Assembly (NCBI RefSeq): GCF_018882155.1
Contig: NZ_JACVPA010000001.1
Span: 992,001 to 1,056,000, forward strand
DNA from: Polynucleobacter nymphae
Lineage (GTDB): Bacteria; Pseudomonadota; Gammaproteobacteria; Burkholderiales; Burkholderiaceae
Direction: 5' to 3'
Length of the DNA: 64,000 nucleotides
Within the stretch, counting starts at the first letter, position 1; each line of letters begins with the position of its first letter. The position numbers were made by a program, and so were the translations under genes. This document shows, piece after piece, positions 4,377 through 16,314 of the stretch. Below the pieces are notes generated by a model. It saw nothing but the letters and a program-made list of their open reading frames with translations. It ran no database searches and was not told the DNA's origin.

Positions 4377-4943
4377 TTAAAACTTCGGCGCAAGGTCCCA
4401 ATGCAAGCCTGCCGCATCTTTAGCATTCATATTGGGTGATATTCCTGCTGGTAGGGGCCACTTAATATCCACTACTGAATCATTCCACGCCAGACATACT
4501 TCACTTTGCGGGTGATAGTAGTCAGTTGTCTTATAGAGAAACTCAGCCGATTCTGAAAGCACTAAGAAACCATGGGCTAATTTTGGCGGAATCCAAAGTT
4601 GCTTGTGGTTTTGGGCGCTGAGCTCAAGCCCAAGCCACTTGCCATAACTTGGTGAATCTTTACGAATATCAACTACCACGTCAAACACGCTGCCAGCAAC
4701 AACACGCACTAACTTACCCTGAGTTTGCTCTAGCTGATAGTGCAAACCCCTCAAAGTCCACTGACGAGAAAACGAATGGTTATCTTGGACAAATTCAAAG
4801 TCGAGTCTGGTGGCATCGAAAAAATCATTTGCATTAAATGACTCAGTAAACCAACCACGCTCATCACCAAAAACCTTAGGCTCAATCAGCAGTACATCAT
4901 GAATTGCAGTGGGGCTTACTTGTAACTTAGCTGGCACAGTCAT
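4377..4943 (-). CDS. rfbC: dTDP-4-dehydrorhamnose 3,5-epimerase
   Basis: A cupin-fold epimerase that inverts C3 and C5 of dTDP-4-keto-6-deoxyglucose, the third step of dTDP-L-rhamnose synthesis. RGLHYQ carries the catalytic histidine (His68), [17 protein letters not shown] is the family core, and TTDYYHP carries the general-acid tyrosine. The length of 188 residues is normal. Its ATG overlaps the rfbA stop in an ATGA arrangement (4940-4943), which indicates translational coupling. The product is the substrate of RfbD. Confidence 0.96.
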
Positions 4944-5869
4944 TTACTAGGTTTCTTTGTAAAGAACGAGCTAGCCTGAGCTGAACTATTAATCTCATTC
5001 AGAATTTTGTTCAGGTATTGGCCATAACTATTTTTACTGAGCTGAGCGGCTACTTTTTGGACCACATCAGCACTGATCCAACCCTGACGATAAGCAATCT
5101 CTTCAGGGCAGGCCACCATCAAACCTTGGCGCTTCTGCAAGGTAGCAATAAAACCTGCAGCATCCAATAAAGAATCATGCGTACCGGTATCTAACCAAGC
5201 AAAACCCCGACCCATGATTTCTACGCTAAGCTCATTCTTATCCAGATACACACGATTGATGTCAGTAATCTCTAATTCACCACGGGCACTCGGTTTAATT
5301 GATGCAGCAATATCACAAACTTGCTTGTCATAAAAATATAGTCCGGTAACAGCGTAGTTACTTTTAGGGCTTACAGGCTTTTCTTCAATTGAAAGCGCTT
5401 TATTGTCTTTATCAAACTCCACTACACCGTAACGCTCTGGATCATTCACGTGATAAGCAAATACGGTAGCGCCAACACTTCTATCATCGGCACTACTGAG
5501 TTGATCTACTAATTCATGGCCATAGAAAATGTTATCGCCCAAGACTAAAGCGCTCGGATGATTGCCAACAAAGTTCTTGCCTAAAGTAAAGGCCTGAGCA
5601 AGACCATCTGGAGATGGCTGTACGCAATACTCAATATTTAACCCCCACTGCGAACCATCACCTAAGAGCTCAGAAAATCGAGGGGTGTCGTGTGGAGTAG
5701 AAATCAACAAGATGTCACGAATACCAGCCAGCATTAAAGTGCTCAATGGGTAATACACCATTGGCTTATCGTAGACTGGCATCAACTGTTTAGAAACTGC
5801 TTGAGTCACTGGATACAGACGAGTACCAGACCCGCCTGCCAAGATAATCCCCTTACGATTTACCGCCAT
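4940..5869 (-). CDS. rfbA: Glucose-1-phosphate thymidylyltransferase
   Basis: Makes dTDP-glucose from glucose-1-phosphate and dTTP, the first step of the rhamnose pathway. The N-terminal nucleotide-binding loop [10 protein letters not shown] lies at residues 11-20, followed by [17 protein letters not shown] and LGDNIFYGH. The length of 309 residues is slightly longer than the common 290-295 because of a Ser-rich C-terminal tail. It is 11 bp downstream of rfbD and overlaps rfbC by 4 bp, so it sits inside the rfbBDAC operon. Confidence 0.96.
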
Positions 5870-6848: not shown

Positions 6849-7907
6849 TCAGTTGTACTGCTTTTGTAACCAGTCACGATAAGAGCCGCTGACTACACCC
6901 TCAATCCATGCTGGATTATCCAAATACCACTGTATAGTTTTACGAATGCCTGTATCAAAAGTCTCCGTAGGACGCCACCCAAGCTCTCGCTCAAGCTTGC
7001 TAGCATCAATGGCATAGCGGCGATCATGGCCAGGGCGATCTTGAACAAACGTAATTTGCTCAGCATAGGTCTTGCCATCGGCACGAGGTTTTAATTCATC
7101 CAAAATACAGCAAATCGTTTTAACGACATCAATATTGGCTTTTTCATTCCAGCCGCCAATGTTATAGGTCTCGCCTAATTTTCCCTTTTCCAATACTTCG
7201 CGAATAGCGGCGCAGTGATCGCCTACATAAAGCCAATCTCGCACTTGCTGACCATCACCATAGATTGGCAGCGGCTTGCCATTAAGGGCATTTAAGATCA
7301 CCAGTGGAATTAATTTCTCTGGGAAGTGATATGGGCCATAATTATTTGAACAATTGGTCGTCACTACTGGAAACCCGTAGGTATGAAACCAAGCGCGTAC
7401 TAAATGATCTGAGGCGGCCTTGGAAGCAGAATAGGGACTATTCGGTTCGTACGGATTAGTTTCCGTGAAGGCAGGATCTGTGGCAGATAGTGAGCCATAA
7501 ACTTCATCAGTGGAAACATGATGAAAACGAAATGCTTTCTTAGCAGCTGCATCAAGACCGCCCCAATACTCTCTAGCGCACTCCAGTAAATTGAAAGTGC
7601 CCATAATATTCGTTTGCACAAACTCTGCAGGCCCATGAATCGAACGATCGACATGGCTTTCTGCTGCAAAATTCACGATAGCACGCGGCTGATGTTCCTT
7701 GAGTAGTTTAGTGACAAGTTCTTTATCGCCAATATCACCATGAATAAACACATAATGAGAGTTCGCCTTCAAAGGGTCAAGGGTGGCTAAATTACCCGCA
7801 TAGGTCAATTTATCGAGATTAACAATGCCTTCAGCATTCGGATTGGATAACCAATCTAATACAAAATTACCGCCGATAAAGCCGGCGCCACCAGTTACTA
7901 AGATCAT
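6849..7907 (-). CDS. rfbB: dTDP-glucose 4,6-dehydratase
   Basis: Converts dTDP-glucose to dTDP-4-keto-6-deoxyglucose, the branch-point intermediate for rhamnose and for amino-deoxy sugars. TGGAGFIGG near the N terminus binds [12 protein letters not shown] carries the active-site Thr-Asp-Glu, and [12 protein letters not shown] carries the Tyr-x3-Lys pair. The length of 352 residues is typical. It is the first gene of the leftward rfbB-rfbD-rfbA-rfbC-waaC run. Only 30 bp separate it from the divergent gene at 7938. Its product could also feed the VioA-like aminotransferase at 11830-12948. Confidence 0.96.
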
Positions 7908-7937: not shown

Positions 7938-8834
7938 ATGCAAATTATGCCTGAAATTCCCCTGCAAATTTCTGAACTGATCTCTGTTTGCTGCCTTAAG
8001 GATATTGAGGCCTGGGAGGTTACTTCTCGTTTTATGGTTCGCAATATTGCAGCTAAACAATATCGAGTCATTGTCCCCAATCGAGAAATTGAAGAGTTTA
8101 TAAAAAAATCTCCTCCGGAATTCAAAGTAATGGGGGAATCGCGTTATACAGAGCAATTCAAAGATCAACTTTTACAGCTCTTGCCTTTAGATAAGAAAAG
8201 TCAATTTGGCTGGTATCTACAACAATTCATTAAGTTATTTGCCATTAAAGACAATCAAGAAAATGCGGTTGTTTTGATTTGGGATGCGGATACTGCACCC
8301 ATCCATAAACTAGAATTTATCAACCCCGAAGGGAAATTAGTTTATTACAAGGGTACAGAGAATCATGAGCCCTACTTTGAAACCATTCAAAAACTCACCG
8401 GGCTCAAAAAGATAGTCTCCTTTTCTTTTATTGCCCAATGTTTTCCAGTTAGAGTTTCATGGCTTAATGAATTTTGCTTAGAGCTAGAGGAAAGATTCAA
8501 AATGCCTTGGATAGAAGCGCTGTTAAGCCAAATCAATTTTGATGCACCAAATAGCTTCAGCGAGTATGAAACCTTAGGCACCTTTATTTCGCATCGTCAT
8601 GTAGATCAAATAATCTACACCGATAGGCCTTGGTGGCGGCTTGGTAATACATTACTAAATCATGTCGCATTTTTAAGCTCAAAAAAGGCCGCGGAACTTT
8701 CAAAGCAATATGACTTTATTAGCTTTGAGAAGTGGGAAAGGGCGAAACCCTACTTTATTAAGGTAAGCATTCCCTACTTCTTTAAAATATATCTTCCTTC
8801 TCTATTCAATAAGAAGCCAACTCGATATGTTTAA
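7938..8834 (+). CDS. DUF6492 family glycosyltransferase-like protein
   Basis: A 298-residue soluble protein with the look of a GT-A-fold sugar transferase: an N-terminal Rossmann-like segment, then VVLIWDADTAPIHKLEF at about 111-127, where WDADT resembles the DxD nucleotide-sugar/metal motif. The GYLQ-like region before it and the ISHRHVD segment near residue 218 resemble DUF6492. A second DUF6492-like protein lies at 15412-16314. The frame overlaps the next gene by 8 bp, suggesting coupled translation. AT-rich composition compared with the flanking core genes suggests acquisition. Sugar donor and acceptor are unknown. Confidence 0.55.
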   Translation: MQIMPEIPLQISELISVCCLKDIEAWEVTSRFMVRNIAAKQYRVIVPNREIEEFIKKSPPEFKVMGESRYTEQFKDQLLQLLPLDKKSQFGWYLQQFIKLFAIKDNQENAVVLIWDADTAPIHKLEFINPEGKLVYYKGTENHEPYFETIQKLTGLKKIVSFSFIAQCFPVRVSWLNEFCLELEERFKMPWIEALLSQINFDAPNSFSEYETLGTFISHRHVDQIIYTDRPWWRLGNTLLNHVAFLSSKKAAELSKQYDFISFEKWERAKPYFIKVSIPYFFKIYLPSLFNKKPTRYV

Positions 8835-9582
8835 TACATTTCACCAATCCAACTTTAAACGTGCCGTCAAGCACCTGTTTGCAAGGCGTAAAAAGAATGT
8901 GGTGCTGATAGAGGCGCACTTTGGACTAGGTGATAATCTTATCTGCTTAGGTCTCTTGCGCGCCCTTGCAGAGAAGAATCCCGAGATCCGATATCACCTT
9001 GCTTGTTTGCCCCAGTACTATCATTCCATTGCTTGGATGCTCCAGGGCACAAAAAATATTTTCCCTACCGTAGTAACTAGTGGCCGTGAAGCAAGGCAAT
9101 TAGCCACTTTTTTAAATGCGAGCTACCAGACAATCGGTATTGACAATATTGACATCAAACGTTTTGATGAATCTTTTTATGCTGAATATGATGTTCCGTT
9201 TGAATATCGCTGGAGTAAAGCAGCAGTCCCACCAGGCCCAGAATCAGAGGCACTTTATGAGCGCCTCAATCCTCAGGATGAGCCCTACATGTTGGTATGT
9301 AGAACAGAGTCTGGAAACAATACTTACCCACTAAAAATCGAGAATCCATCCAAGTTAAAAGTCATTGAAATTTATCCAGCAACACATAATATCTTTGACT
9401 GGACAAAACTGGTTGAGAAGGCTTCTGAAATTCACTCGATAGATACTTCATTTTTACATTTTGTAGAAAATGTTTTGCATGAGAAATCTAGTGGGCGCTT
9501 GTACTACCATCTTGCCAAGAAAAAGCTGAAAAGCGCATTCACCCGAAAATTACCCTGGGCATTAGTGAACTATGATGACTAA
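8827..9582 (+). CDS. Heptosyltransferase-like (GT9-related) protein
   Basis: A 251-residue protein whose N-terminal AHFGLGDNLICLGLLRAL (about residues 30-47) resembles the opening of GT9 transferases and related GT-B proteins. The C-terminal EIHSIDTSFLHFVENV resembles the DTG/DTS acceptor motif of that family. It is shorter than a full GT9 enzyme (about 320-350), so it may be a minimal or divergent member. It overlaps the preceding DUF6492 gene by 8 bp and precedes the GT10-like gene by 27 bp on the same strand. I infer a role in glycan assembly from this setting. Confidence 0.5.
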   Translation: MFNTFHQSNFKRAVKHLFARRKKNVVLIEAHFGLGDNLICLGLLRALAEKNPEIRYHLACLPQYYHSIAWMLQGTKNIFPTVVTSGREARQLATFLNASYQTIGIDNIDIKRFDESFYAEYDVPFEYRWSKAAVPPGPESEALYERLNPQDEPYMLVCRTESGNNTYPLKIENPSKLKVIEIYPATHNIFDWTKLVEKASEIHSIDTSFLHFVENVLHEKSSGRLYYHLAKKKLKSAFTRKLPWALVNYDD

Positions 9583-9609
9583 GACTCAAACCTTTACTGA
9601 ATAAGCCAC

Positions 9610-10554
9610 ATGAAATCAATCAAGATAGCAACTAAGGGTGTGCCACATGACTATCAGTCGAGTCTTTTGCCTATTATTATTCAGAGTATGGGATACCGGA
9701 TTGACTGGGTAAACCATGATCAAGCAGATTTACTCATTCTTGGACCCTTTTTTAAGGAAAACCAAAAGCCTTATCGATGGCTCCCAAAACCTCTCAGGCC
9801 GCTAGCTAGTAAATCGATGAATGCTATTAGCACCAAGAGGCGGCAGGATCCCTTAAAGCTTTTCCACACCCAAGAGAACGAGCGACATGATTTTGTAAAC
9901 GCTGAATACTCCATCTCATTTGACCTTGGCGTGCAATCAAACAATCACATGAGATTTCCCTATTGGATGGAAATGCTCGATTGGTCTCATGAGGGCATCC
10001 TAGGCAATACTAATCCTAGATATGGCGAACTATTAAGCATATCCACTTTAATGTCTCCGCTTGGGGATCAATACCTCAAAAGAGGCGGAATATGCACCCT
10101 TCTTTCTTCACATCTCAGAGAGCCGAGGGGGTCACTCTTTAAAGCGCTAGAAAAAGTGATTCCAATCCAGGGTTTTGGCGCCTTCTTCAACAAAGAAATT
10201 AAAAGTCATCACTCTAGTGGATTTCTGAAAATGGATATCCTCAAAGATTTTTCTTTTAACTTGTGCCCTGAGAATGGTTTATACCCAGGTTACTACACAG
10301 AAAAGATACCGGAAGCATTTTATTCTGGCTGTTTGCCTATTACTTGGGCAGATGACAATATCAGCGTCGACTTTAATCCAAGCGCATTCTTAAATCTCGA
10401 GCCGCTATTTAAAAGTGATTTTCAAGAACTTCCGGATTTGTTTCGAAATAAAGAAAAGCTTGAGGCCTATCAATCCGAAGCTTTATTGCAAAAGAAACCT
10501 TCAATAGAGCCGCTTAAAGACTATTTAAAAGTCATTTTGAGCGATTTATCTTAA
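9610..10554 (+). CDS. GT10 fucosyltransferase-like protein
   Basis: A 314-residue protein with the alpha-(1,3)-fucosyltransferase GT10 signature at about residues 215-246: FNLCPENGLYPGYYTEKIPE followed by AFYSGCLPITW. That segment binds GDP-fucose in the family. The N-terminal half is poorly conserved, as usual for GT10, where it recognises the acceptor. It ends the rightward three-gene run from 7938 and converges with the ATP-grasp gene 5 bp away. No GDP-fucose synthesis genes (gmd, fcl) are in the window, so the donor sugar is either made elsewhere or differs. Confidence 0.72.
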   Translation: MKSIKIATKGVPHDYQSSLLPIIIQSMGYRIDWVNHDQADLLILGPFFKENQKPYRWLPKPLRPLASKSMNAISTKRRQDPLKLFHTQENERHDFVNAEYSISFDLGVQSNNHMRFPYWMEMLDWSHEGILGNTNPRYGELLSISTLMSPLGDQYLKRGGICTLLSSHLREPRGSLFKALEKVIPIQGFGAFFNKEIKSHHSSGFLKMDILKDFSFNLCPENGLYPGYYTEKIPEAFYSGCLPITWADDNISVDFNPSAFLNLEPLFKSDFQELPDLFRNKEKLEAYQSEALLQKKPSIEPLKDYLKVILSDLS

Positions 10555-10559
10555 GAAAA

Positions 10560-11828
10560 TTATTGGTCTAGCAAAAACTCCATCATTGAACAATCAAAAG
10601 TAGGAATTTTTTTAACCTTTTGAACATCTCTTCGCTCCGAAAAACTATCATCTATAAAAATAGCATTCTTATGAGTGATTGCCGATGATTTTTTCTCATC
10701 TTTCTTAAGGTGAATAATTTTGTCAAATAAGTGATTCAAGCGATATTTACTTAATGTCTTTGATAAATCGCCGGCATGCCTAGTGATCAAGATAATTTCT
10801 ATGCCTTTATTTACACACTTATATAAAAATTGAATTACCTGTAAATTAATTTGACTACCTAAGAGAATAGTGTCATCAAAATCAACGTACACACTATCAA
10901 AATCAATACTCTTTTTATACTTGTTTTTTAGGGCTCTATCTAACAAAACTGGATAGGAATTCTTCAAAATAGATAAGGGCAATCGCTCTGCTTCAAAAAT
11001 ACTCAACAGTGGAAAATTAACACCCTGAACACGGTTGGCAGCCATTGACCCTGCAATTCTTGGGCCAATTTCTAAAAGCGTTAATTCACTATTTATATCT
11101 TCTTTAACCTGAAAAAACCAAGCTCCTTGCATGCTTAGTTCATCTGAAATTTTTTGGGCAAATGAGTTAAAAATGGGGCTCTCAATTATCTGAGTACTTA
11201 CTGCAATCCCATTACGCATTCTCAGACGTTGTCGGGCCCCACTAAATAGTAATCCTTTTTCCCTATCTGAAAAACAATCAACGGTATATTCATTGCCTGG
11301 CAAATATTCCGAAATAATAGGGCTTTCAATTTCTTCTATTGATTGCTGCAATTCTTCTCTAGATTTAACGAGCTTGATTCCAAAGGATCCTTGGCCTTTA
11401 TCAGGTTTAATAAAAACAGGAAAAGTCACTACATCATCAGTGTCCTTGTAAACCTTTGGTGTTTTAACTACAGATTTCAGTTTTTGATAGGTTTCGCTTT
11501 TGCTACGTGTTAATAAGCAGATTTCATGGGATGGAATAAGAATTGTGGCTGGTATTTTTTCTCTGTTTGCGCTTAGCGCCACGATAACATCATCATAAGC
11601 TGGAAAAATATAATCTATATCCAGTTTTTTGACGACAGAAATAAGTTCGTCTAGCCATTGATCAGAGTGAATACTTGGAATTTGATGATAATTATCGTAT
11701 AGCAATTCAGCATGATTCGAGATTGCCTGTCCCGCAGCAAATAATTCCACCTCTTTACAAGAATGGAGGGCTGAGTAAATCTCAAGTCCAATCTCAGTGC
11801 CTGCAGGAAAAACTAAAACCTTTCTCAT
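10560..11828 (-). CDS. ATP-grasp ligase fused to a HAD-like domain
   Basis: A 422-residue two-domain protein. Residues 1-95 form the pre-ATP-grasp domain, and about 100-295 the ATP-grasp domain, with PVFIKPDKGQGSFGIK at 137-152 and LLEIGPRIAGSMAANR at 251-266 (metal/phosphate-binding). From about 310 comes a HAD-type domain: VYVDFDDTILLG at 313-324 with Asp316 and Asp318, ILITRHAGD at 346-354, a Lys cluster near 378, and FIDDSFSERR at 391-400. ATP-grasp enzymes join a carboxylate to an amine or thiol through an acyl phosphate. Its ATG begins one base after the aminotransferase stop, implying coupled expression. Substrate unknown; the pairing suggests modification of an amino sugar. Confidence 0.7.
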   Translation of the reverse strand: MRKVLVFPAGTEIGLEIYSALHSCKEVELFAAGQAISNHAELLYDNYHQIPSIHSDQWLDELISVVKKLDIDYIFPAYDDVIVALSANREKIPATILIPSHEICLLTRSKSETYQKLKSVVKTPKVYKDTDDVVTFPVFIKPDKGQGSFGIKLVKSREELQQSIEEIESPIISEYLPGNEYTVDCFSDREKGLLFSGARQRLRMRNGIAVSTQIIESPIFNSFAQKISDELSMQGAWFFQVKEDINSELTLLEIGPRIAGSMAANRVQGVNFPLLSIFEAERLPLSILKNSYPVLLDRALKNKYKKSIDFDSVYVDFDDTILLGSQINLQVIQFLYKCVNKGIEIILITRHAGDLSKTLSKYRLNHLFDKIIHLKKDEKKSSAITHKNAIFIDDSFSERRDVQKVKKIPTFDCSMMEFLLDQ

Positions 11829-11829
11829 A

Positions 11830-12948
11830 TCAACTTGCCGATGCTTTTATTATGCTAATAATTTTAGAGATGCTATCTTCACCCAATCCAGGATAAATAG
11901 GTAGGCACAAGACTTCATTAGCTATTTCGGTAGCAATTGGCAAGTTTGATGGTGTGGAGGAGGGAAGATTTTGATACATTGGAAACTCTGAAATCAAAGG
12001 ATAGAAATATCGTCTCGAAAAAATGTCTTCACTCTTAAGTTTTTCATATAGTTGATCCCTGCTAATTCGGTAATTTTTCGTTACCAGTATCGGGTAATAA
12101 GAGTGGTTACTTTCATCCGACAGATTATTCTGCGCAATGACGATGCCCTCTATAGCTTTAAGGCCGCGATTGTAGAGCTCGGCAACCTGCTTTCGCTCAG
12201 AGAGCACCTCTTTAGCATGTTTCAGCTGCAAAAGTCCAAAAGCAGCATTAATTTCACTCATTTTTCCATTGATGCCAGACTCAACTACGGTAACCTCATC
12301 CACAAAACCAAAATTCTTAAGCTGGTCAATGCGACGCTTCATTTCGGGAGTGTGACTAATAATCGCCCCGCCCTCAAAAGTATTAAAAATTTTGGTTGCA
12401 TGGAAACTAAGCACAGATAAATCACCATGCTTCAAAATACTCCCACAATGGCATTGCACTCCAAAAGCATGTGCTGCGTCATAAATAACTTTTAAATTAT
12501 GACGATCAGCTATTTCTTGGATTGCCTCTACATCGCAAGGAGTCCCATAGCAATGAACAGGAAGAATTGCCTGAGTATTTTTAGTGATGGCAGATTCAAT
12601 TTTTTCAGGGTCTAAATTCATTGAAACTGGATCTATATCAGAAAATACCGGAGAAATATTGTTCCACACTAGAGAATTTGTAGTGGCAACAAATGAAAAT
12701 GGGCTTGTAATAACCTCGCCCCGTATACCAAGAGCTTGCAAAGCAACGACTAATGCTATGGTTCCATTACTAAAAAGCGAGATATATTCAACCCCAAGGT
12801 AGCGACATAACTCTTTCTCCAACTGCTGGTGAAATACTCCACCATTGGTAAGATTTTTACTCTCCCAGATTGCTTCTAAGTAGGGGTAAAATTCCTTTAA
12901 ATCAGGAAGATAGGGCTGAGTAACGTAAATTGGCTTTTTACTATTCAT
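11830..12948 (-). CDS. VioA-like sugar aminotransferase (DegT/DnrJ/EryC1/StrS)
   Basis: A PLP-dependent enzyme that transaminates a keto-sugar nucleotide. LFSNGTIALVVALQAL is the cofactor phosphate region, VIYDAAHAFGV carries the PLP-binding aspartate (Asp157), and SFHATKIFNTFEGG carries the Schiff-base lysine (Lys186). The N-terminal TQPYLPDL and LTNGGVFHQQLE resemble dTDP-4-amino-4,6-dideoxyglucose transaminase VioA, which uses the product of RfbB. The substrate is therefore plausibly dTDP-4-keto-6-deoxyglucose, but this is inference. The length of 372 residues is normal. It precedes the ATP-grasp/HAD gene with a one-base gap. Confidence 0.82.
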   Translation of the reverse strand: MNSKKPIYVTQPYLPDLKEFYPYLEAIWESKNLTNGGVFHQQLEKELCRYLGVEYISLFSNGTIALVVALQALGIRGEVITSPFSFVATTNSLVWNNISPVFSDIDPVSMNLDPEKIESAITKNTQAILPVHCYGTPCDVEAIQEIADRHNLKVIYDAAHAFGVQCHCGSILKHGDLSVLSFHATKIFNTFEGGAIISHTPEMKRRIDQLKNFGFVDEVTVVESGINGKMSEINAAFGLLQLKHAKEVLSERKQVAELYNRGLKAIEGIVIAQNNLSDESNHSYYPILVTKNYRISRDQLYEKLKSEDIFSRRYFYPLISEFPMYQNLPSSTPSNLPIATEIANEVLCLPIYPGLGEDSISKIISIIKASAS

Positions 12949-13007
12949 AACTGTATTCTAACAACCTTACTATAAAAATTAAGCCCCTCATTTAGATAGC
13001 GCTAACC

Positions 13008-13775
13008 ATGTTTTTAGATAAATTTTTCAAGAAAAAACTGCATATCTTCTTCCGCCACGTTCATATTTATGAGCCGGCAACCAAAGCTAGGCCAGACTGG
13101 TTTTCAATGGAGTCCTGCTTTCTGAATCTAATATCCACCCTTTCGAATAAGGAACTCCCATTAAAGGTAGATTTAACCATCATGTTTGATGGCAATGATG
13201 CTTCATTTGATGACGATTTTCTTTCATCTTATATGAAATCCAGAGGAGAGCAGTCCCCTATCAAAATTAAAATTATTCAATTTAATGGAGGCTCTGATGC
13301 CAAATCTTTCCATCAAACCATTGACCATATCTTGGATCAAAAATACTCAGATGATGATTGGATTTACTTTTTAGAAAACGATTATCTACATGATGCCAAC
13401 TGGATTGTTAAGTTATCAAACCTGATTAATCTAGGTAAAAATCTTGAGTATGTTTCTCTATATGATCATTTTGATAAGTATCTATATAAGCAATACGACG
13501 ATTTAGAATCTAAATTATTTTTTTATGGGAATCACCACTGGAGAAGCACCCCTAGTACCTGCGCATCTTTTCTAGTTAGCTCGCACATTCTTAATCAAGA
13601 TGCTCAAATTATCAAAAGTAGTGGTGGAGATCATGATTTTTTTACAGCGCTAGCTGAAAAAAAATCTAGGAAAATAATCAGTCCGATTCCGGGGCTCTCA
13701 ACCCACTGCATGATAGATTTTTTATCCCCTGGCATTGATTGGGAAAAGATCAGTAATTCTGAAAAATTGAATTAA
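13008..13775 (+). CDS. Putative glycosyltransferase, GT-A-like
   Basis: A 255-residue protein with no clear named family. The region WIYFLENDYLHDANWI (about 118-133) looks like the acidic donor/metal motif of GT-A transferases, and GGDHDFFTAL near residue 206 resembles the late catalytic region of such enzymes. No signal peptide or membrane segment is evident. It precedes a GT2 gene by 11 bp on the same strand and is divergent from the aminotransferase gene, with 59 bp between. A role in surface glycan synthesis is inferred mainly from neighbours. Confidence 0.5.
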   Translation: MFLDKFFKKKLHIFFRHVHIYEPATKARPDWFSMESCFLNLISTLSNKELPLKVDLTIMFDGNDASFDDDFLSSYMKSRGEQSPIKIKIIQFNGGSDAKSFHQTIDHILDQKYSDDDWIYFLENDYLHDANWIVKLSNLINLGKNLEYVSLYDHFDKYLYKQYDDLESKLFFYGNHHWRSTPSTCASFLVSSHILNQDAQIIKSSGGDHDFFTALAEKKSRKIISPIPGLSTHCMIDFLSPGIDWEKISNSEKLN

Positions 13776-13786
13776 ATTACTGCCAA

Positions 13787-14659
13787 ATGCTCTTTTCTAA
13801 TTTCTATCAAAAAGCTAGAAGCCTTCATCGACGACTTCGCAATGGTATTAAAGAGACATTCAGACCTGAAATATCTCAAAGAAAAATTCGTACCTTTATC
13901 AAAAATACACAGATCGTAGATAAATCAGAGCCTCCTTCTTCTGAGCGCTCATCTATTGCAGTTATAGTTCCTTGCTATGGCCATGCTCCATTTCTACAGG
14001 AGATGTTTGAGAGCATTCAACGACAAACCATCCCTCCAAACGAAGTCATTTTTGTTGTGGATCGATCGCCTGATAACACTCTACCAATTCTTGAAGGACT
14101 TGTTCAAGAAAATCAGTCTAATAGTTCATCGCGCTTTACCATTCTAGAAAATGAAAGTAATTTAGGCCAAGCAGCGAGCCTAAATAAAGGGGTTGAATAC
14201 TCAAGCTCTGATCTCATTATGATTTTGAATGATGATGACTACCTCATGCATGACAGCATTGAAGTGACGCATAAAATCCTAAAAAAATATCCCCAGGCGG
14301 TATTACTTGGTGGACATTCGCTTCATTTTGGAGGCAATAGCCTTGGAAGTACTCCAAAACTAATTCAATCCATTTGCCCAGTTGAAAATATTGAAATCGA
14401 CTTGCGCCTTCCAAATCAGGTAAAGAGATACCGCAAATATAACGACATTAATATGACTCACAGCGGTAGTAGCTTTTACAAATTCGCCTGGAAAACTATC
14501 GGCGGCTATTACCCTGATAAATCAAAGAGGCTAGTTCATTTTTCGGATAGAGACTTTCAATTAAGAATGAATGCTCTATTTCCAGTCGCACTAAGCAATA
14601 TTACGCCCCTCAGTTGCTGGAGAAATGACAGTAGCGTTGATCAAGGAGTCAACTCGTAA
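13787..14659 (+). CDS. Family 2 glycosyltransferase
   Basis: A 290-residue GT-A enzyme. IAVIVPCYGHAPFLQEMFES begins the nucleotide-binding fold near residue 57, NESNLGQAASLNKGVEY at 122-138 is the standard second motif, and MILNDDDYLM at 145-154 carries the metal-binding Asp triad. The first 50 residues are a basic leader without an obvious signal peptide. It follows the 13008 gene by 11 bp and converges with the GT25 gene 3 bp away. Donor and acceptor sugars cannot be read from the sequence. Confidence 0.82.
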   Translation: MLFSNFYQKARSLHRRLRNGIKETFRPEISQRKIRTFIKNTQIVDKSEPPSSERSSIAVIVPCYGHAPFLQEMFESIQRQTIPPNEVIFVVDRSPDNTLPILEGLVQENQSNSSSRFTILENESNLGQAASLNKGVEYSSSDLIMILNDDDYLMHDSIEVTHKILKKYPQAVLLGGHSLHFGGNSLGSTPKLIQSICPVENIEIDLRLPNQVKRYRKYNDINMTHSGSSFYKFAWKTIGGYYPDKSKRLVHFSDRDFQLRMNALFPVALSNITPLSCWRNDSSVDQGVNS

Positions 14660-15411: not shown

Positions 15412-16314
15412 CTAGAGATAGCTTTGTAAATAGCGCAAAAATCTTTTTACTTTTTTGTTTGCCCTTGAAAGCAATGATTTTTCAGGCACCCCAAGATCTA
15501 AATCCGAATCCCAGTTAGATTGATAAATAACTCCCAAGTAATTCTTGGTAAGCCTATTTTCAGACTCCCCCAACCTTTGCAATAAATAAAACTGCCAGTC
15601 ATAGTAGTAAATCCGGAACAACTGCTCTATGGGTTTTAATGGAATAGCTTGGAAATTCAAGAGCGCTTCAAGATACAGCAGTGTCTCTGGATGGTCTGTA
15701 GTAGAAATATCCCAGAAGGTCAGATCCTTAGGAATGAGAAATTGCTCATCGAGCGAGCGCCAAACTTTGGCTGACCAAATAAACGGTGGGCAAGGGCAAT
15801 AATAATTAGGTCCATTTCTACCAAATAAAGCTTTAACTCGATCTCCTTCAAGGCATAAATTTTCCACAACCTTCGAATGATTTCGGTCAATTGCCAACTG
15901 AAAAAATTCTTTATTCTGGTAAATAACGGTATACGGATTGCCATCTGGCGCAATGAAATCCTTACGGCCAAATTCTTTGAGAAAGATGCAGTCTGAATCA
16001 AGACAAACATAGGTTTCAGAGATTCCTAGTCTCCAGAACTCAGACTTGATCGCTTGCTGTGCTAAAGAACCAGACCTAGTTTTCTCTATTCCTGCTTTTA
16101 CTCTTGGATTAGCTGCAATGATGGATTCATCGGATACCCAGTGGTATTCGATATTCGAACCAAGAATATTCTTTAGTTCCTCACATTGATCTTGTGGGGT
16201 TGAAATATACAATGGGATTTGATCTACGTTATATTTCTGAATTGACTCTAGCAAACGCTTTAGACGTAGAAAATCCCGTCGATATGACTTGCAATAGAGA
16301 ACGAGATCTTTCAA
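15412..16314 (-). CDS. DUF6492 family glycosyltransferase-like protein
   Basis: A 300-residue protein of the same type as the one at 7938-8834. The opening LVLYCKSYRRDFLRLKRLLE and IPLYISTP match DUF6492, and TYVCLDSDCIFLKEF (about 101-115) supplies a DxD-like motif. The segment CPCPPFIWSAKVW and the late TTDHPETLLYLEAL resemble a GT-A acceptor region. Its ATG overlaps the GT4 stop (16311-16314), so the two are translationally coupled. It lies 17 bp before the GT25 gene. Donor and acceptor are unknown. Confidence 0.6.
   Translation of the reverse strand: MKDLVLYCKSYRRDFLRLKRLLESIQKYNVDQIPLYISTPQDQCEELKNILGSNIEYHWVSDESIIAANPRVKAGIEKTRSGSLAQQAIKSEFWRLGISETYVCLDSDCIFLKEFGRKDFIAPDGNPYTVIYQNKEFFQLAIDRNHSKVVENLCLEGDRVKALFGRNGPNYYCPCPPFIWSAKVWRSLDEQFLIPKDLTFWDISTTDHPETLLYLEALLNFQAIPLKPIEQLFRIYYYDWQFYLLQRLGESENRLTKNYLGVIYQSNWDSDLDLGVPEKSLLSRANKKVKRFLRYLQSYL

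What the first reader, a model, noticed from the sequence alone, without database searches (positions are those of the whole stretch)
10560..12948. VioA-like aminotransferase coupled to an ATP-grasp/HAD fusion: possible new amino-sugar modification
The aminotransferase can use the RfbB product to give a 4-amino sugar nucleotide, usually N-acetylated by a partner such as VioB. Here the next gene, one base away, is an ATP-grasp ligase with a full C-terminal HAD domain instead of an acetyltransferase. A ligase could attach an amino acid or other acyl group to the amine, and the HAD domain could remove a phosphate. This combination is not one I recognise.
Basis: inference. Interest (0 to 1): 0.65.

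Follow-up and report, generated by a model that had tools for sequence, protein, structure and literature searches.

The report
Sugar-tagging ligase fused to a phosphatase
A bacterium carries a gene for an amino-sugar maker next to a gene that joins a bond-forming enzyme to a phosphate-removing enzyme, and the pair recurs in unrelated bacteria, which suggests an undescribed way of decorating a surface sugar.

Summary
A VioA/DesI-type DegT aminotransferase (11830-12948, -) is followed after one base by a 422-aa protein (10560-11828, -). Its first ~305 residues fold as an ATP-grasp ligase (2pn1, Z 29.8) and its last ~115 as a small, apparently capless HAD phosphatase (Z 14.2) that no Pfam HAD model recognises. 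I found the fusion full length in 11 further loci of three phyla, searching by the fusion alone. All 12 loci, window included, hold a DegT aminotransferase within about 4 kb, 7 of 12 within 100 bases or overlapping. In 299 Pseudomonadota genomes the HAD domain was found only inside the fusion (5 of 5). Relatives of the aminotransferase elsewhere sit beside other acyl-type genes. Two precedents fit: Neisseria PglB2 (ATP-grasp; a HAD gene next door in 18 of 20 loci examined) makes a 4-glyceramido sugar, and Campylobacter Cj1438C/Cj1435 ligate a phosphorylated building block, then remove the phosphate. Best reading: the fusion acylates the 4-amine of dTDP-viosamine with a phospho-acid, perhaps phosphoglycerate, and dephosphorylates it. 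No data here show the acyl group or the substrate. New variant of a known kind.

The parts
11830..12948 (-). VioA/DesI-type DegT aminotransferase, 372 aa; predicted to turn dTDP-4-keto-6-deoxyglucose into dTDP-4-amino-4,6-dideoxyglucose (dTDP-viosamine)
   Evidence: the HATK stretch with K186 is invariant in 13 aligned relatives
10560..11828 (-). ATP-grasp/HAD fusion, 422 aa, one base downstream of the aminotransferase
10914..11828 (-). ATP-grasp ligase part, residues 1-305
   Evidence: PF15632, PF02655, PF13535, PF21360 and PF07478 above gathering scores; 2pn1 Z 29.8, rmsd 2.2, 274 aligned; PylC 4ffr Z 28.2, rmsd 2.8, 285 aligned
10563..10913 (-). Small HAD phosphatase part, residues 306-422; motif I VDFDDT (D316, D318, D319), K380, motif IV D393
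   Evidence: Invariant columns in 12 homologs; separate model pLDDT 95.3; 3e58 Z 14.2, rmsd 2.2, 115 aligned; MDP-1 1u7o Z 13.6, rmsd 2.4, 114 aligned
6849..7907 (-). rmlB, dTDP-glucose 4,6-dehydratase: source of the aminotransferase's presumed substrate
   Evidence: TIGR01181 506 bits, cut-off 365
4940..5869 (-). rmlA, glucose-1-phosphate thymidylyltransferase
   Evidence: TIGR01207 513 bits, cut-off 361

Best explanation
A two-gene acylation module for an amino sugar. RmlA and RmlB make dTDP-4-keto-6-deoxyglucose (inferred from family membership). The VioA-type aminotransferase makes dTDP-4-amino-4,6-dideoxyglucose (inferred). The ATP-grasp part activates the carboxylate of a small phosphorylated acid with ATP and joins it to the 4-amine as an amide (inferred from fold, conserved pairing and precedent). 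The small HAD part, on the same chain, removes the phosphate from the new amide (inferred from kept motifs and the Cj1438C/Cj1435 precedent). The likeliest acid is 3-phosphoglycerate, giving an N-glyceroyl sugar as reported for the Neisseria PglB2 pathway; for that last step alone I would say about 0.3. The finished sugar would be placed on LPS or, in some relatives, flagellin (inferred from neighbours).
For: A DegT aminotransferase lies near the fusion in 12 of 12 loci, across Pseudomonadota, Spirochaetota and Actinomycetota. 11 of the 12 aminotransferases are 44-100% identical to the window's, and all 12 match the DesI model at E <= 1e-30 (which also shows that all match PseC and LegC models; that DesI is the best was shown for the window only). 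Seven of the genomes hold only 1 to 5 DegT genes each at E <= 1e-20, so random placement would rarely put one so near. The active-site residues are kept in 12 of 12, apart from one Asp-to-Asn in motif IV of the Cupriavidus member. In 299 Pseudomonadota genomes (drawn like, and overlapping, those) the HAD domain was found in 5, each time inside the fusion. Relatives of the aminotransferase sit beside other acyl-type genes: ketoacyl synthase, ACP and acetyltransferase in B. glumae, WbqC and GNAT in Rhizobium and Tateyamaria, GNAT and an ATP-grasp in an E. coli plasmid, two ATP-grasps in Bacteroides finegoldii. In Neisseria, 18 of the 20 best-scoring ATP-grasp loci have a HAD gene next door, and PglB2 is reported to make GATDH, a 4-glyceramido sugar (passages). 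Cj1438C ligates serinol phosphate, after which the HAD enzyme Cj1435 removes the phosphate (passages).
Against: No substrate is shown. The window's ATP-grasp is no closer to the Neisseria ones than to other family members: the main hit of each of the 25 Neisseria genomes scores 66-91 bits and three further hits 31-33, against 94 for 2pn1 with the same profile. The HAD parts differ: the Neisseria one tested is a longer HAD_2 type, the window's is about 115 residues. Two of 20 Neisseria loci lack the HAD gene next door. Cj1438C is a TupA-like ATP-grasp, its phosphate is on the amine and not on the acid, and it acts on the growing chain, not on the sugar nucleotide. Aminotransferase and fusion distances correlate weakly over 12 loci (Pearson r 0.37, 202 of 20000 permutations reach it; Spearman 0.0003), and not once the near-duplicate L002 is left out (r 0.04, 8163 of 20000). 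One of the 12 partners (L033) is a distant aminotransferase (28%), and that locus has a weak VioB-like acyltransferase match about 8 kb from the fusion.
Confidence: 0.5

Rival explanations
1. The ATP-grasp part attaches an acid that is not phosphorylated at the time of ligation (an amino acid, or glycerate already freed of phosphate). The HAD part supplies that acid by dephosphorylating a precursor such as phosphoserine or 3-phosphoglycerate, so the order is phosphatase first.
For: PylC and an L-amino acid ligase are among the structural or sequence relatives. A Bacteroides VioA relative sits beside two ATP-grasps whose lengths and sequences show no HAD part (read by eye), and two of 20 Neisseria loci lack the HAD gene next door.
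Against: In the one biochemically worked-out parallel that I read passages of, ligation comes first. Fusion in cis is explained as well by either order.
Confidence: 0.25
2. The fusion works on another substrate of the same surface polysaccharide, for example a glycerol-phosphate or CDP-alditol decoration, and the aminotransferase is a frequent neighbour only because both belong to glycan islands.
For: A TagD-like cytidylyltransferase lies within about 4 kb in 4 of 12 loci (L005, L023, L025, L026), and a LicD gene in L005. The genes between aminotransferase and fusion vary, and the co-inheritance test was null without L002.
Against: With the L005 query at E <= 1e-4, TagD-like genes were not found in the other 8 loci as held, while an aminotransferase is in 12 of 12. 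11 of the 12 aminotransferases are 44% or more identical to the window's.
Confidence: 0.15
3. The HAD part has an activity like FkbH, handling a glyceryl group from 1,3-bisphosphoglycerate, and hands it to the ligase or the sugar.
For: Only a sub-threshold match of one of six domain members to FkbH (E 0.078) and the FIDDS..ER stretch; the FkbH chemistry is recalled, not looked up.
Against: Matches to Cof-type HADs are better though also far under cut-off (best E 0.0007, 4 of 6 members), and the ATP-grasp part would then be unnecessary.
Confidence: 0.04

Closest known systems
Neisseria PglB2 plus adjacent HAD gene (GATDH pathway)
   Same: ATP-grasp and HAD genes lie together with a DegT aminotransferase (6 of 6 wide stretches around the main hits); the published PglB2 product is a 4-glyceramido amino sugar (PMC6959607, PMC11130364, passages). 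The ATP-grasp part is a remote homolog (hhalign 99.3%, 25% identity over 278 columns).
   Different: In Neisseria the ATP-grasp follows, or in L063 is fused to, a phosphoglycosyltransferase; the HAD is a separate, larger gene; the sugar is a 2-acetamido trideoxyhexose on UDP. The window's HAD is small and fused, and the pair has no phosphoglycosyltransferase.
Campylobacter jejuni Cj1438C and Cj1435
   Same: ATP-grasp amide ligase using a phosphorylated building block, followed by a HAD phosphatase that removes the phosphate (PMC11800397, PMC11800379, passages).
   Different: Separate proteins, TupA-like ATP-grasp; the sugar supplies the acid and the small molecule the amine; it acts on the growing chain.
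Viosamine island (vioA, vioM, vioT, vioS, vioB, vioR, acp) of Pseudomonas syringae
   Same: VioA-type aminotransferase making a 4-amino-4,6-dideoxyglucose that is N-acylated before transfer to flagellin (PMC3927599, passages).
   Different: The acyl group is 3-hydroxybutyryl from an acyl-carrier route; no ATP-grasp or HAD is among the seven genes of its Table 1. I did not compare its VioA sequence; the annotated vioA that I compared is from B. glumae.
PRK12767 / 2pn1 carbamoyl-phosphate-synthase-like ATP-grasp proteins
   Same: Same fold in residues 1-305.
   Different: Scores far under the equivalog cut-offs (best 110 against 390). The weak relatives L027, L028 and L029 are 344, 327 and 336 aa, without room for the HAD part.

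Membership tests
VioA/DesI dTDP-4-keto-6-deoxyglucose 4-aminotransferase | DegT family with the PLP-binding lysine | tested here: met
   PF01041 339 bits; HATK with K186 invariant in 13 of 13. That this lysine binds PLP is recalled.
VioA/DesI dTDP-4-keto-6-deoxyglucose 4-aminotransferase | Score above the DesI equivalog cut-off (TIGR04427) | tested here: not met
   294 bits against a cut-off of 650, though it is the best model for the window protein. 64% identity to an annotated vioA.
VioA/DesI dTDP-4-keto-6-deoxyglucose 4-aminotransferase | Activity on dTDP-4-keto-6-deoxyglucose | not testable with these tools
   Needs an enzyme assay.
ATP-grasp superfamily | ATP-grasp fold with ATP lysines and metal-binding residues | tested here: met
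   2pn1 Z 29.8; K110, K141, E174, Q240, E253 invariant in 12 of 12. Assignment of these residues to ATP and metal is recalled from CarB and PurK.
PRK12767 carbamoyl-phosphate-synthase-like equivalogs | Score above the NCBIfam cut-off | tested here: not met
   Best 110 bits against 390.
HAD phosphatases | HAD motifs and Rossmann-like HAD core | tested here: met
   D316, D318, K380, D393 invariant in 12 of 12; motif II Thr/Ser by eye; fold Z 14.2, 115 of 118 residues aligned.
HAD phosphatases | Match to a curated Pfam HAD family | tested here: not met
   None of 6 members above a cut-off; one Acid_phosphat_B match at E 0.25.
HAD phosphatases | Phosphatase activity | not testable with these tools
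   Needs an assay.
PglB2 / GATDH module | ATP-grasp joined to a phosphoglycosyltransferase | tested here: not met
   No such domain in the window fusion; L063 has ATP-grasp and phosphoglycosyltransferase in one 527-aa ORF.
PglB2 / GATDH module | ATP-grasp, HAD and DegT coding parts together | tested here: met
   Window. Neisseria: HAD next door in 18 of 20 loci, DegT in 6 of 6 wide stretches.
PglB2 / GATDH module | Glyceroyl product | not testable with these tools
   Needs glycan analysis.
Cj1438C-type amide ligase | TupA-like ATP-grasp fold | not tested
   No Cj1438 sequence or model was compared.

The most novel reading that the evidence does not exclude
A single-chain ligase-phosphatase that loads a phosphate-bearing acid onto dTDP-viosamine and removes the phosphate in cis, its small HAD using the ATP-grasp part as its lid: a further, unnamed class of viosamine N-acylation beside the VioB/ketoacyl-synthase and WbqC modules, shared by horizontal transfer across three phyla for LPS and flagellin glycans.
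Probability: 0.35. Interest if true: 0.65.

Novelty: new variant of a known kind. Interest (0 to 1): 0.5.

Why it matters
If true it names a surface-sugar modification enzyme that is recognisable from sequence alone, predicts a specific N-acyl viosamine in scattered bacteria of three phyla, and gives a testable role to the HAD gene that lies beside the PglB2-type ATP-grasp in Neisseria.

Tried and rejected
The idea that the pairing is a chance neighbour was tested by fetching relatives of the fusion only and then looking for the aminotransferase: 12 of 12 have one. A distance-correlation test for co-inheritance gave r 0.37 over 12 loci (202 of 20000 permutations reach it; Spearman 0.0003), which fell to 0.04 without L002 (8163 of 20000) and 0.15 without L002 and L033 (4824 of 20000). 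I do not claim co-inheritance; fusion distances are near saturation, so power is low.

VioB-type acyltransferase in the same genomes: with the B. glumae acetyltransferase as query, all 7 genomes searched have some match at E <= 1e-5. In G000 the matches score 48, 38 and 31 bits, the best one about 64 kb from the window's aminotransferase and nearer to another DegT gene. In G783 a match of 30 bits lies about 8 kb from the fusion. An acetyltransferase acting on the same sugar is thus not excluded.

An orthology argument for glycerate through PglB2 was rejected: the Neisseria ATP-grasp is no closer than others. Structure comparison of the whole model said little about the HAD part, so the HAD was folded alone. 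In the HAD's own comparison many HAD families lie within Z 2 of each other, so no subfamily can be named from it.

Literature: no paper on an ATP-grasp/HAD fusion beside VioA appeared in the listings of searches of the open library. Those of 21 and 51 were cut to 20 of 363 and 20 of 3,525 papers, and subscription papers are mostly not held, so this is no proof of absence in print. Chamot-Rooke 2007 and Viburiene 2013 were not held. Passages, not whole texts, were seen of PMC6959607, PMC11130364, PMC4569582, PMC11800397, PMC11800379, PMC3927599, PMC9933511 and PMC4000134.
Full report
What is there. Two minus-strand ORFs match the finding exactly: 11830-12948 (372 aa) and 10560-11828 (422 aa), with one base between them. 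The first is a DegT/DnrJ/EryC1 aminotransferase. Its best NCBIfam model is DesI (294 bits, cut-off 650, so not an equivalog call), its best solved relative is 2po3 (that this is DesI is recalled), and it is 63.8% identical to a gene annotated vioA in Burkholderia glumae. RmlB, RmlD and RmlA lie 4-6 kb from it on the same strand. The seven genes from 7938 to 14659 have 35-41% G+C, against 44% for the whole window. Among 121 genomes of the window's kin, its own included, only its own has the fusion, although a near relative from another collection (L002, 93% identical) carries the same region. This suggests a horizontally gained island.

The fusion. Residues 1-305 match five ATP-grasp-related Pfam families above gathering scores (PF15632, PF02655, PF13535, PF21360, PF07478). 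A model made from six sequences (pLDDT 88.4, pTM 0.86) aligns with 2pn1 at Z 29.8 (rmsd 2.2, 274 residues) and with PylC 4ffr at Z 28.2 (rmsd 2.8, 285 residues). The last ~115 residues reach no Pfam HAD cut-off in six members. Folded alone (pLDDT 95.3) they align with HAD enzymes at Z up to 14.2 (3e58, rmsd 2.2, 115 residues; MDP-1 1u7o 13.6). Foldseek's best hits are MDP-1 and 2pr7 (137 aa), with a KDN-9-phosphate phosphatase also listed. 3e58 has 208 residues, so some 90 of them, presumably its cap, have no counterpart here. Over 12 homologs D316, D318, D319, K380, D393, E398 and R399 of the HAD and K110, K141, E174, Q240, E253, R257 and N271 of the ligase do not vary. In the Cupriavidus member the residue after D393 is Asn, not Asp. 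R266 and R298 are also invariant; R266 is opposite tyrosine in a Neisseria ATP-grasp. Such extra arginines could hold a phosphate, but that is inference.

Is it chance? I collected relatives with the fusion alone. A genome-contig scan gave five full-length loci and one partial. Searches with the alignment gave 5 full-length hits (own genome included) and 2 partial ones in 398 Pseudomonadota (E <= 1e-20), 1 full-length (already known) and 2 partial in 198 genomes of the Treponema phylum (E <= 1e-20), and 2 full-length (one known) and 1 partial in 246 genomes of the Acidimicrobiales phylum (E <= 1e-30). Plasmid records gave two full-length Cupriavidus hits, of which I used one, and four partial ones; phages gave none. 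That makes 12 full-length loci with the window. tblastn with the window aminotransferase then found a DegT gene in 12 of 12, at 100, 96, 65, 62, 62, 61, 57, 56, 56, 45, 44 and 28% identity. From the coordinates the gap is at most about 4 kb, and 7 of 12 are within 100 bases or overlap (window, L002, L004, L005, L023, L024, L026). One pair (L006/L030) is on opposite strands. Seven of the genomes have 1-5 DegT genes each in 2.1-5.1 Mb at E <= 1e-20; by hand, random placement within 5 kb would happen in roughly 0.3-1.6% of cases per genome. Glycan genes cluster, so the true baseline is higher. All 13 aminotransferases aligned (12 partners and one Rhizobium) match the DesI model at E <= 1e-30, but all also match PseC and LegC models; DesI is shown as best for the window only. 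In 299 Pseudomonadota genomes, drawn like those, the HAD domain was found in 5, each time inside the fusion (E <= 1e-4).

Context in relatives. L024 lies beside flagellin and fliD, and L023 beside flg genes (read by eye). TagD-like cytidylyltransferases are within about 4 kb in 4 of 12 loci and a LicD gene in 1. A WbqC gene is in the Cupriavidus locus. I looked at seven annotated loci with relatives of the aminotransferase but without the fusion, of 38 plasmid records matched. Six have acyl-type neighbours: ketoacyl-ACP synthase III, ACP, an SDR reductase and an acetyltransferase beside flagellin in B. glumae, WbqC and GNAT in two Rhizobium records and in Tateyamaria, GNAT, a PLP enzyme and an ATP-grasp in an E. 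coli plasmid, and two ATP-grasps in Bacteroides finegoldii. The seventh, Parabacteroides, has rfbA and a dehydratase upstream and an acetyltransferase only 5.5 kb downstream. The aminotransferase thus looks like a fixed entry step with exchangeable acyl modules, of which the fusion would be one. The published viosamine island has vioA with vioM, vioT, vioS, vioB, vioR and acp and gives Qui4N(3-hydroxybutyryl)2Me (PMC3927599, passages).

Precedents for mechanism. Passages of PMC6959607 and PMC11130364 say that PglB2 joins an ATP-grasp part to a phosphoglycosyltransferase and makes GATDH, a 4-glyceramido sugar; one figure legend lists a HAD hydrolase among the genes drawn for N. oralis. In 46 genomes of the genus that I take for Neisseria by its uptake signal, 25 have an ATP-grasp hit at E <= 1e-5. 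In the 20 best-scoring of these places, which came as loci, 20 have the phosphoglycosyltransferase next door and 18 a HAD gene next door (missing in L048 and L057). Six wider stretches around main hits (L061, L062, L063, L065, L066, L067) all hold a DegT gene as well; three stretches around weak second hits (L064, L068, L069) showed none of these genes. A Neisseria-like trio occurs in L027, and an ATP-grasp with a HAD gene in L022 among neuB- and neuC-like genes (read by eye). For C. jejuni, passages of PMC11800397 and PMC11800379 report that Cj1438C makes an amide with (S)-serinol phosphate on the growing chain and that the HAD enzyme Cj1435 then removes the phosphate. In a table of PMC4000134 (passages) a Clostridium acetobutylicum glycan locus holds an ATP-grasp ligase and, as another protein, an amino-sugar acetyltransferase fused to a HAD phosphatase: amide-making and HAD parts have thus been noted together elsewhere too.

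How it most likely works. Shown: gene order, predicted folds, kept motifs, conserved pairing. Inferred: the aminotransferase makes dTDP-viosamine; the ATP-grasp part joins a phosphorylated acid to its amine; the HAD part removes the phosphate. The acid is guessed as 3-phosphoglycerate because PglB2 yields a glyceramide and 3-phosphoglycerate is common in cells; this is the weakest step. Against it: sequence gives no special link to PglB2, the HAD types differ, two Neisseria loci lack the HAD next door, and the co-inheritance test was null without L002.

Verdict. A real, conserved two-domain enzyme, unnamed in the libraries and listings I searched, in a known kind of pathway.

Noticed in passing
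L022 (G641), 1492-2980: An ATP-grasp gene overlaps a HAD gene, with neuB-like and neuC-like genes on either side (by eye), hinting at the same ligase/phosphatase pairing in a nonulosonic acid pathway.
   Followed up: no
L036, L038, L074: The same aminotransferase subfamily is followed by a conserved set: WbqC, a glycosylase-like protein, a hypothetical protein, GNAT and a methyltransferase; in L038 an IS3 transposase lies between aminotransferase and WbqC.
   Followed up: partly
L005, L023, L025, L026: TagD-like cytidylyltransferase near the fusion in 4 of 12 loci, with LicD in L005; its link to the module is unexplained.
   Followed up: partly
L006 and L030 (same contig): The Coriobacteriales locus also carries an IspD-like cytidylyltransferase, an SDR and a large protein whose C-terminal half looks like a CDP-glycerol phosphotransferase (read by eye).
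   Followed up: no
window 9610-10554: A GT10 (fucosyltransferase-type) gene converges on the fusion, with 5 bases between their ends; two DUF6492 genes flank the region (7938-8834, 15412-16314).
   Followed up: no
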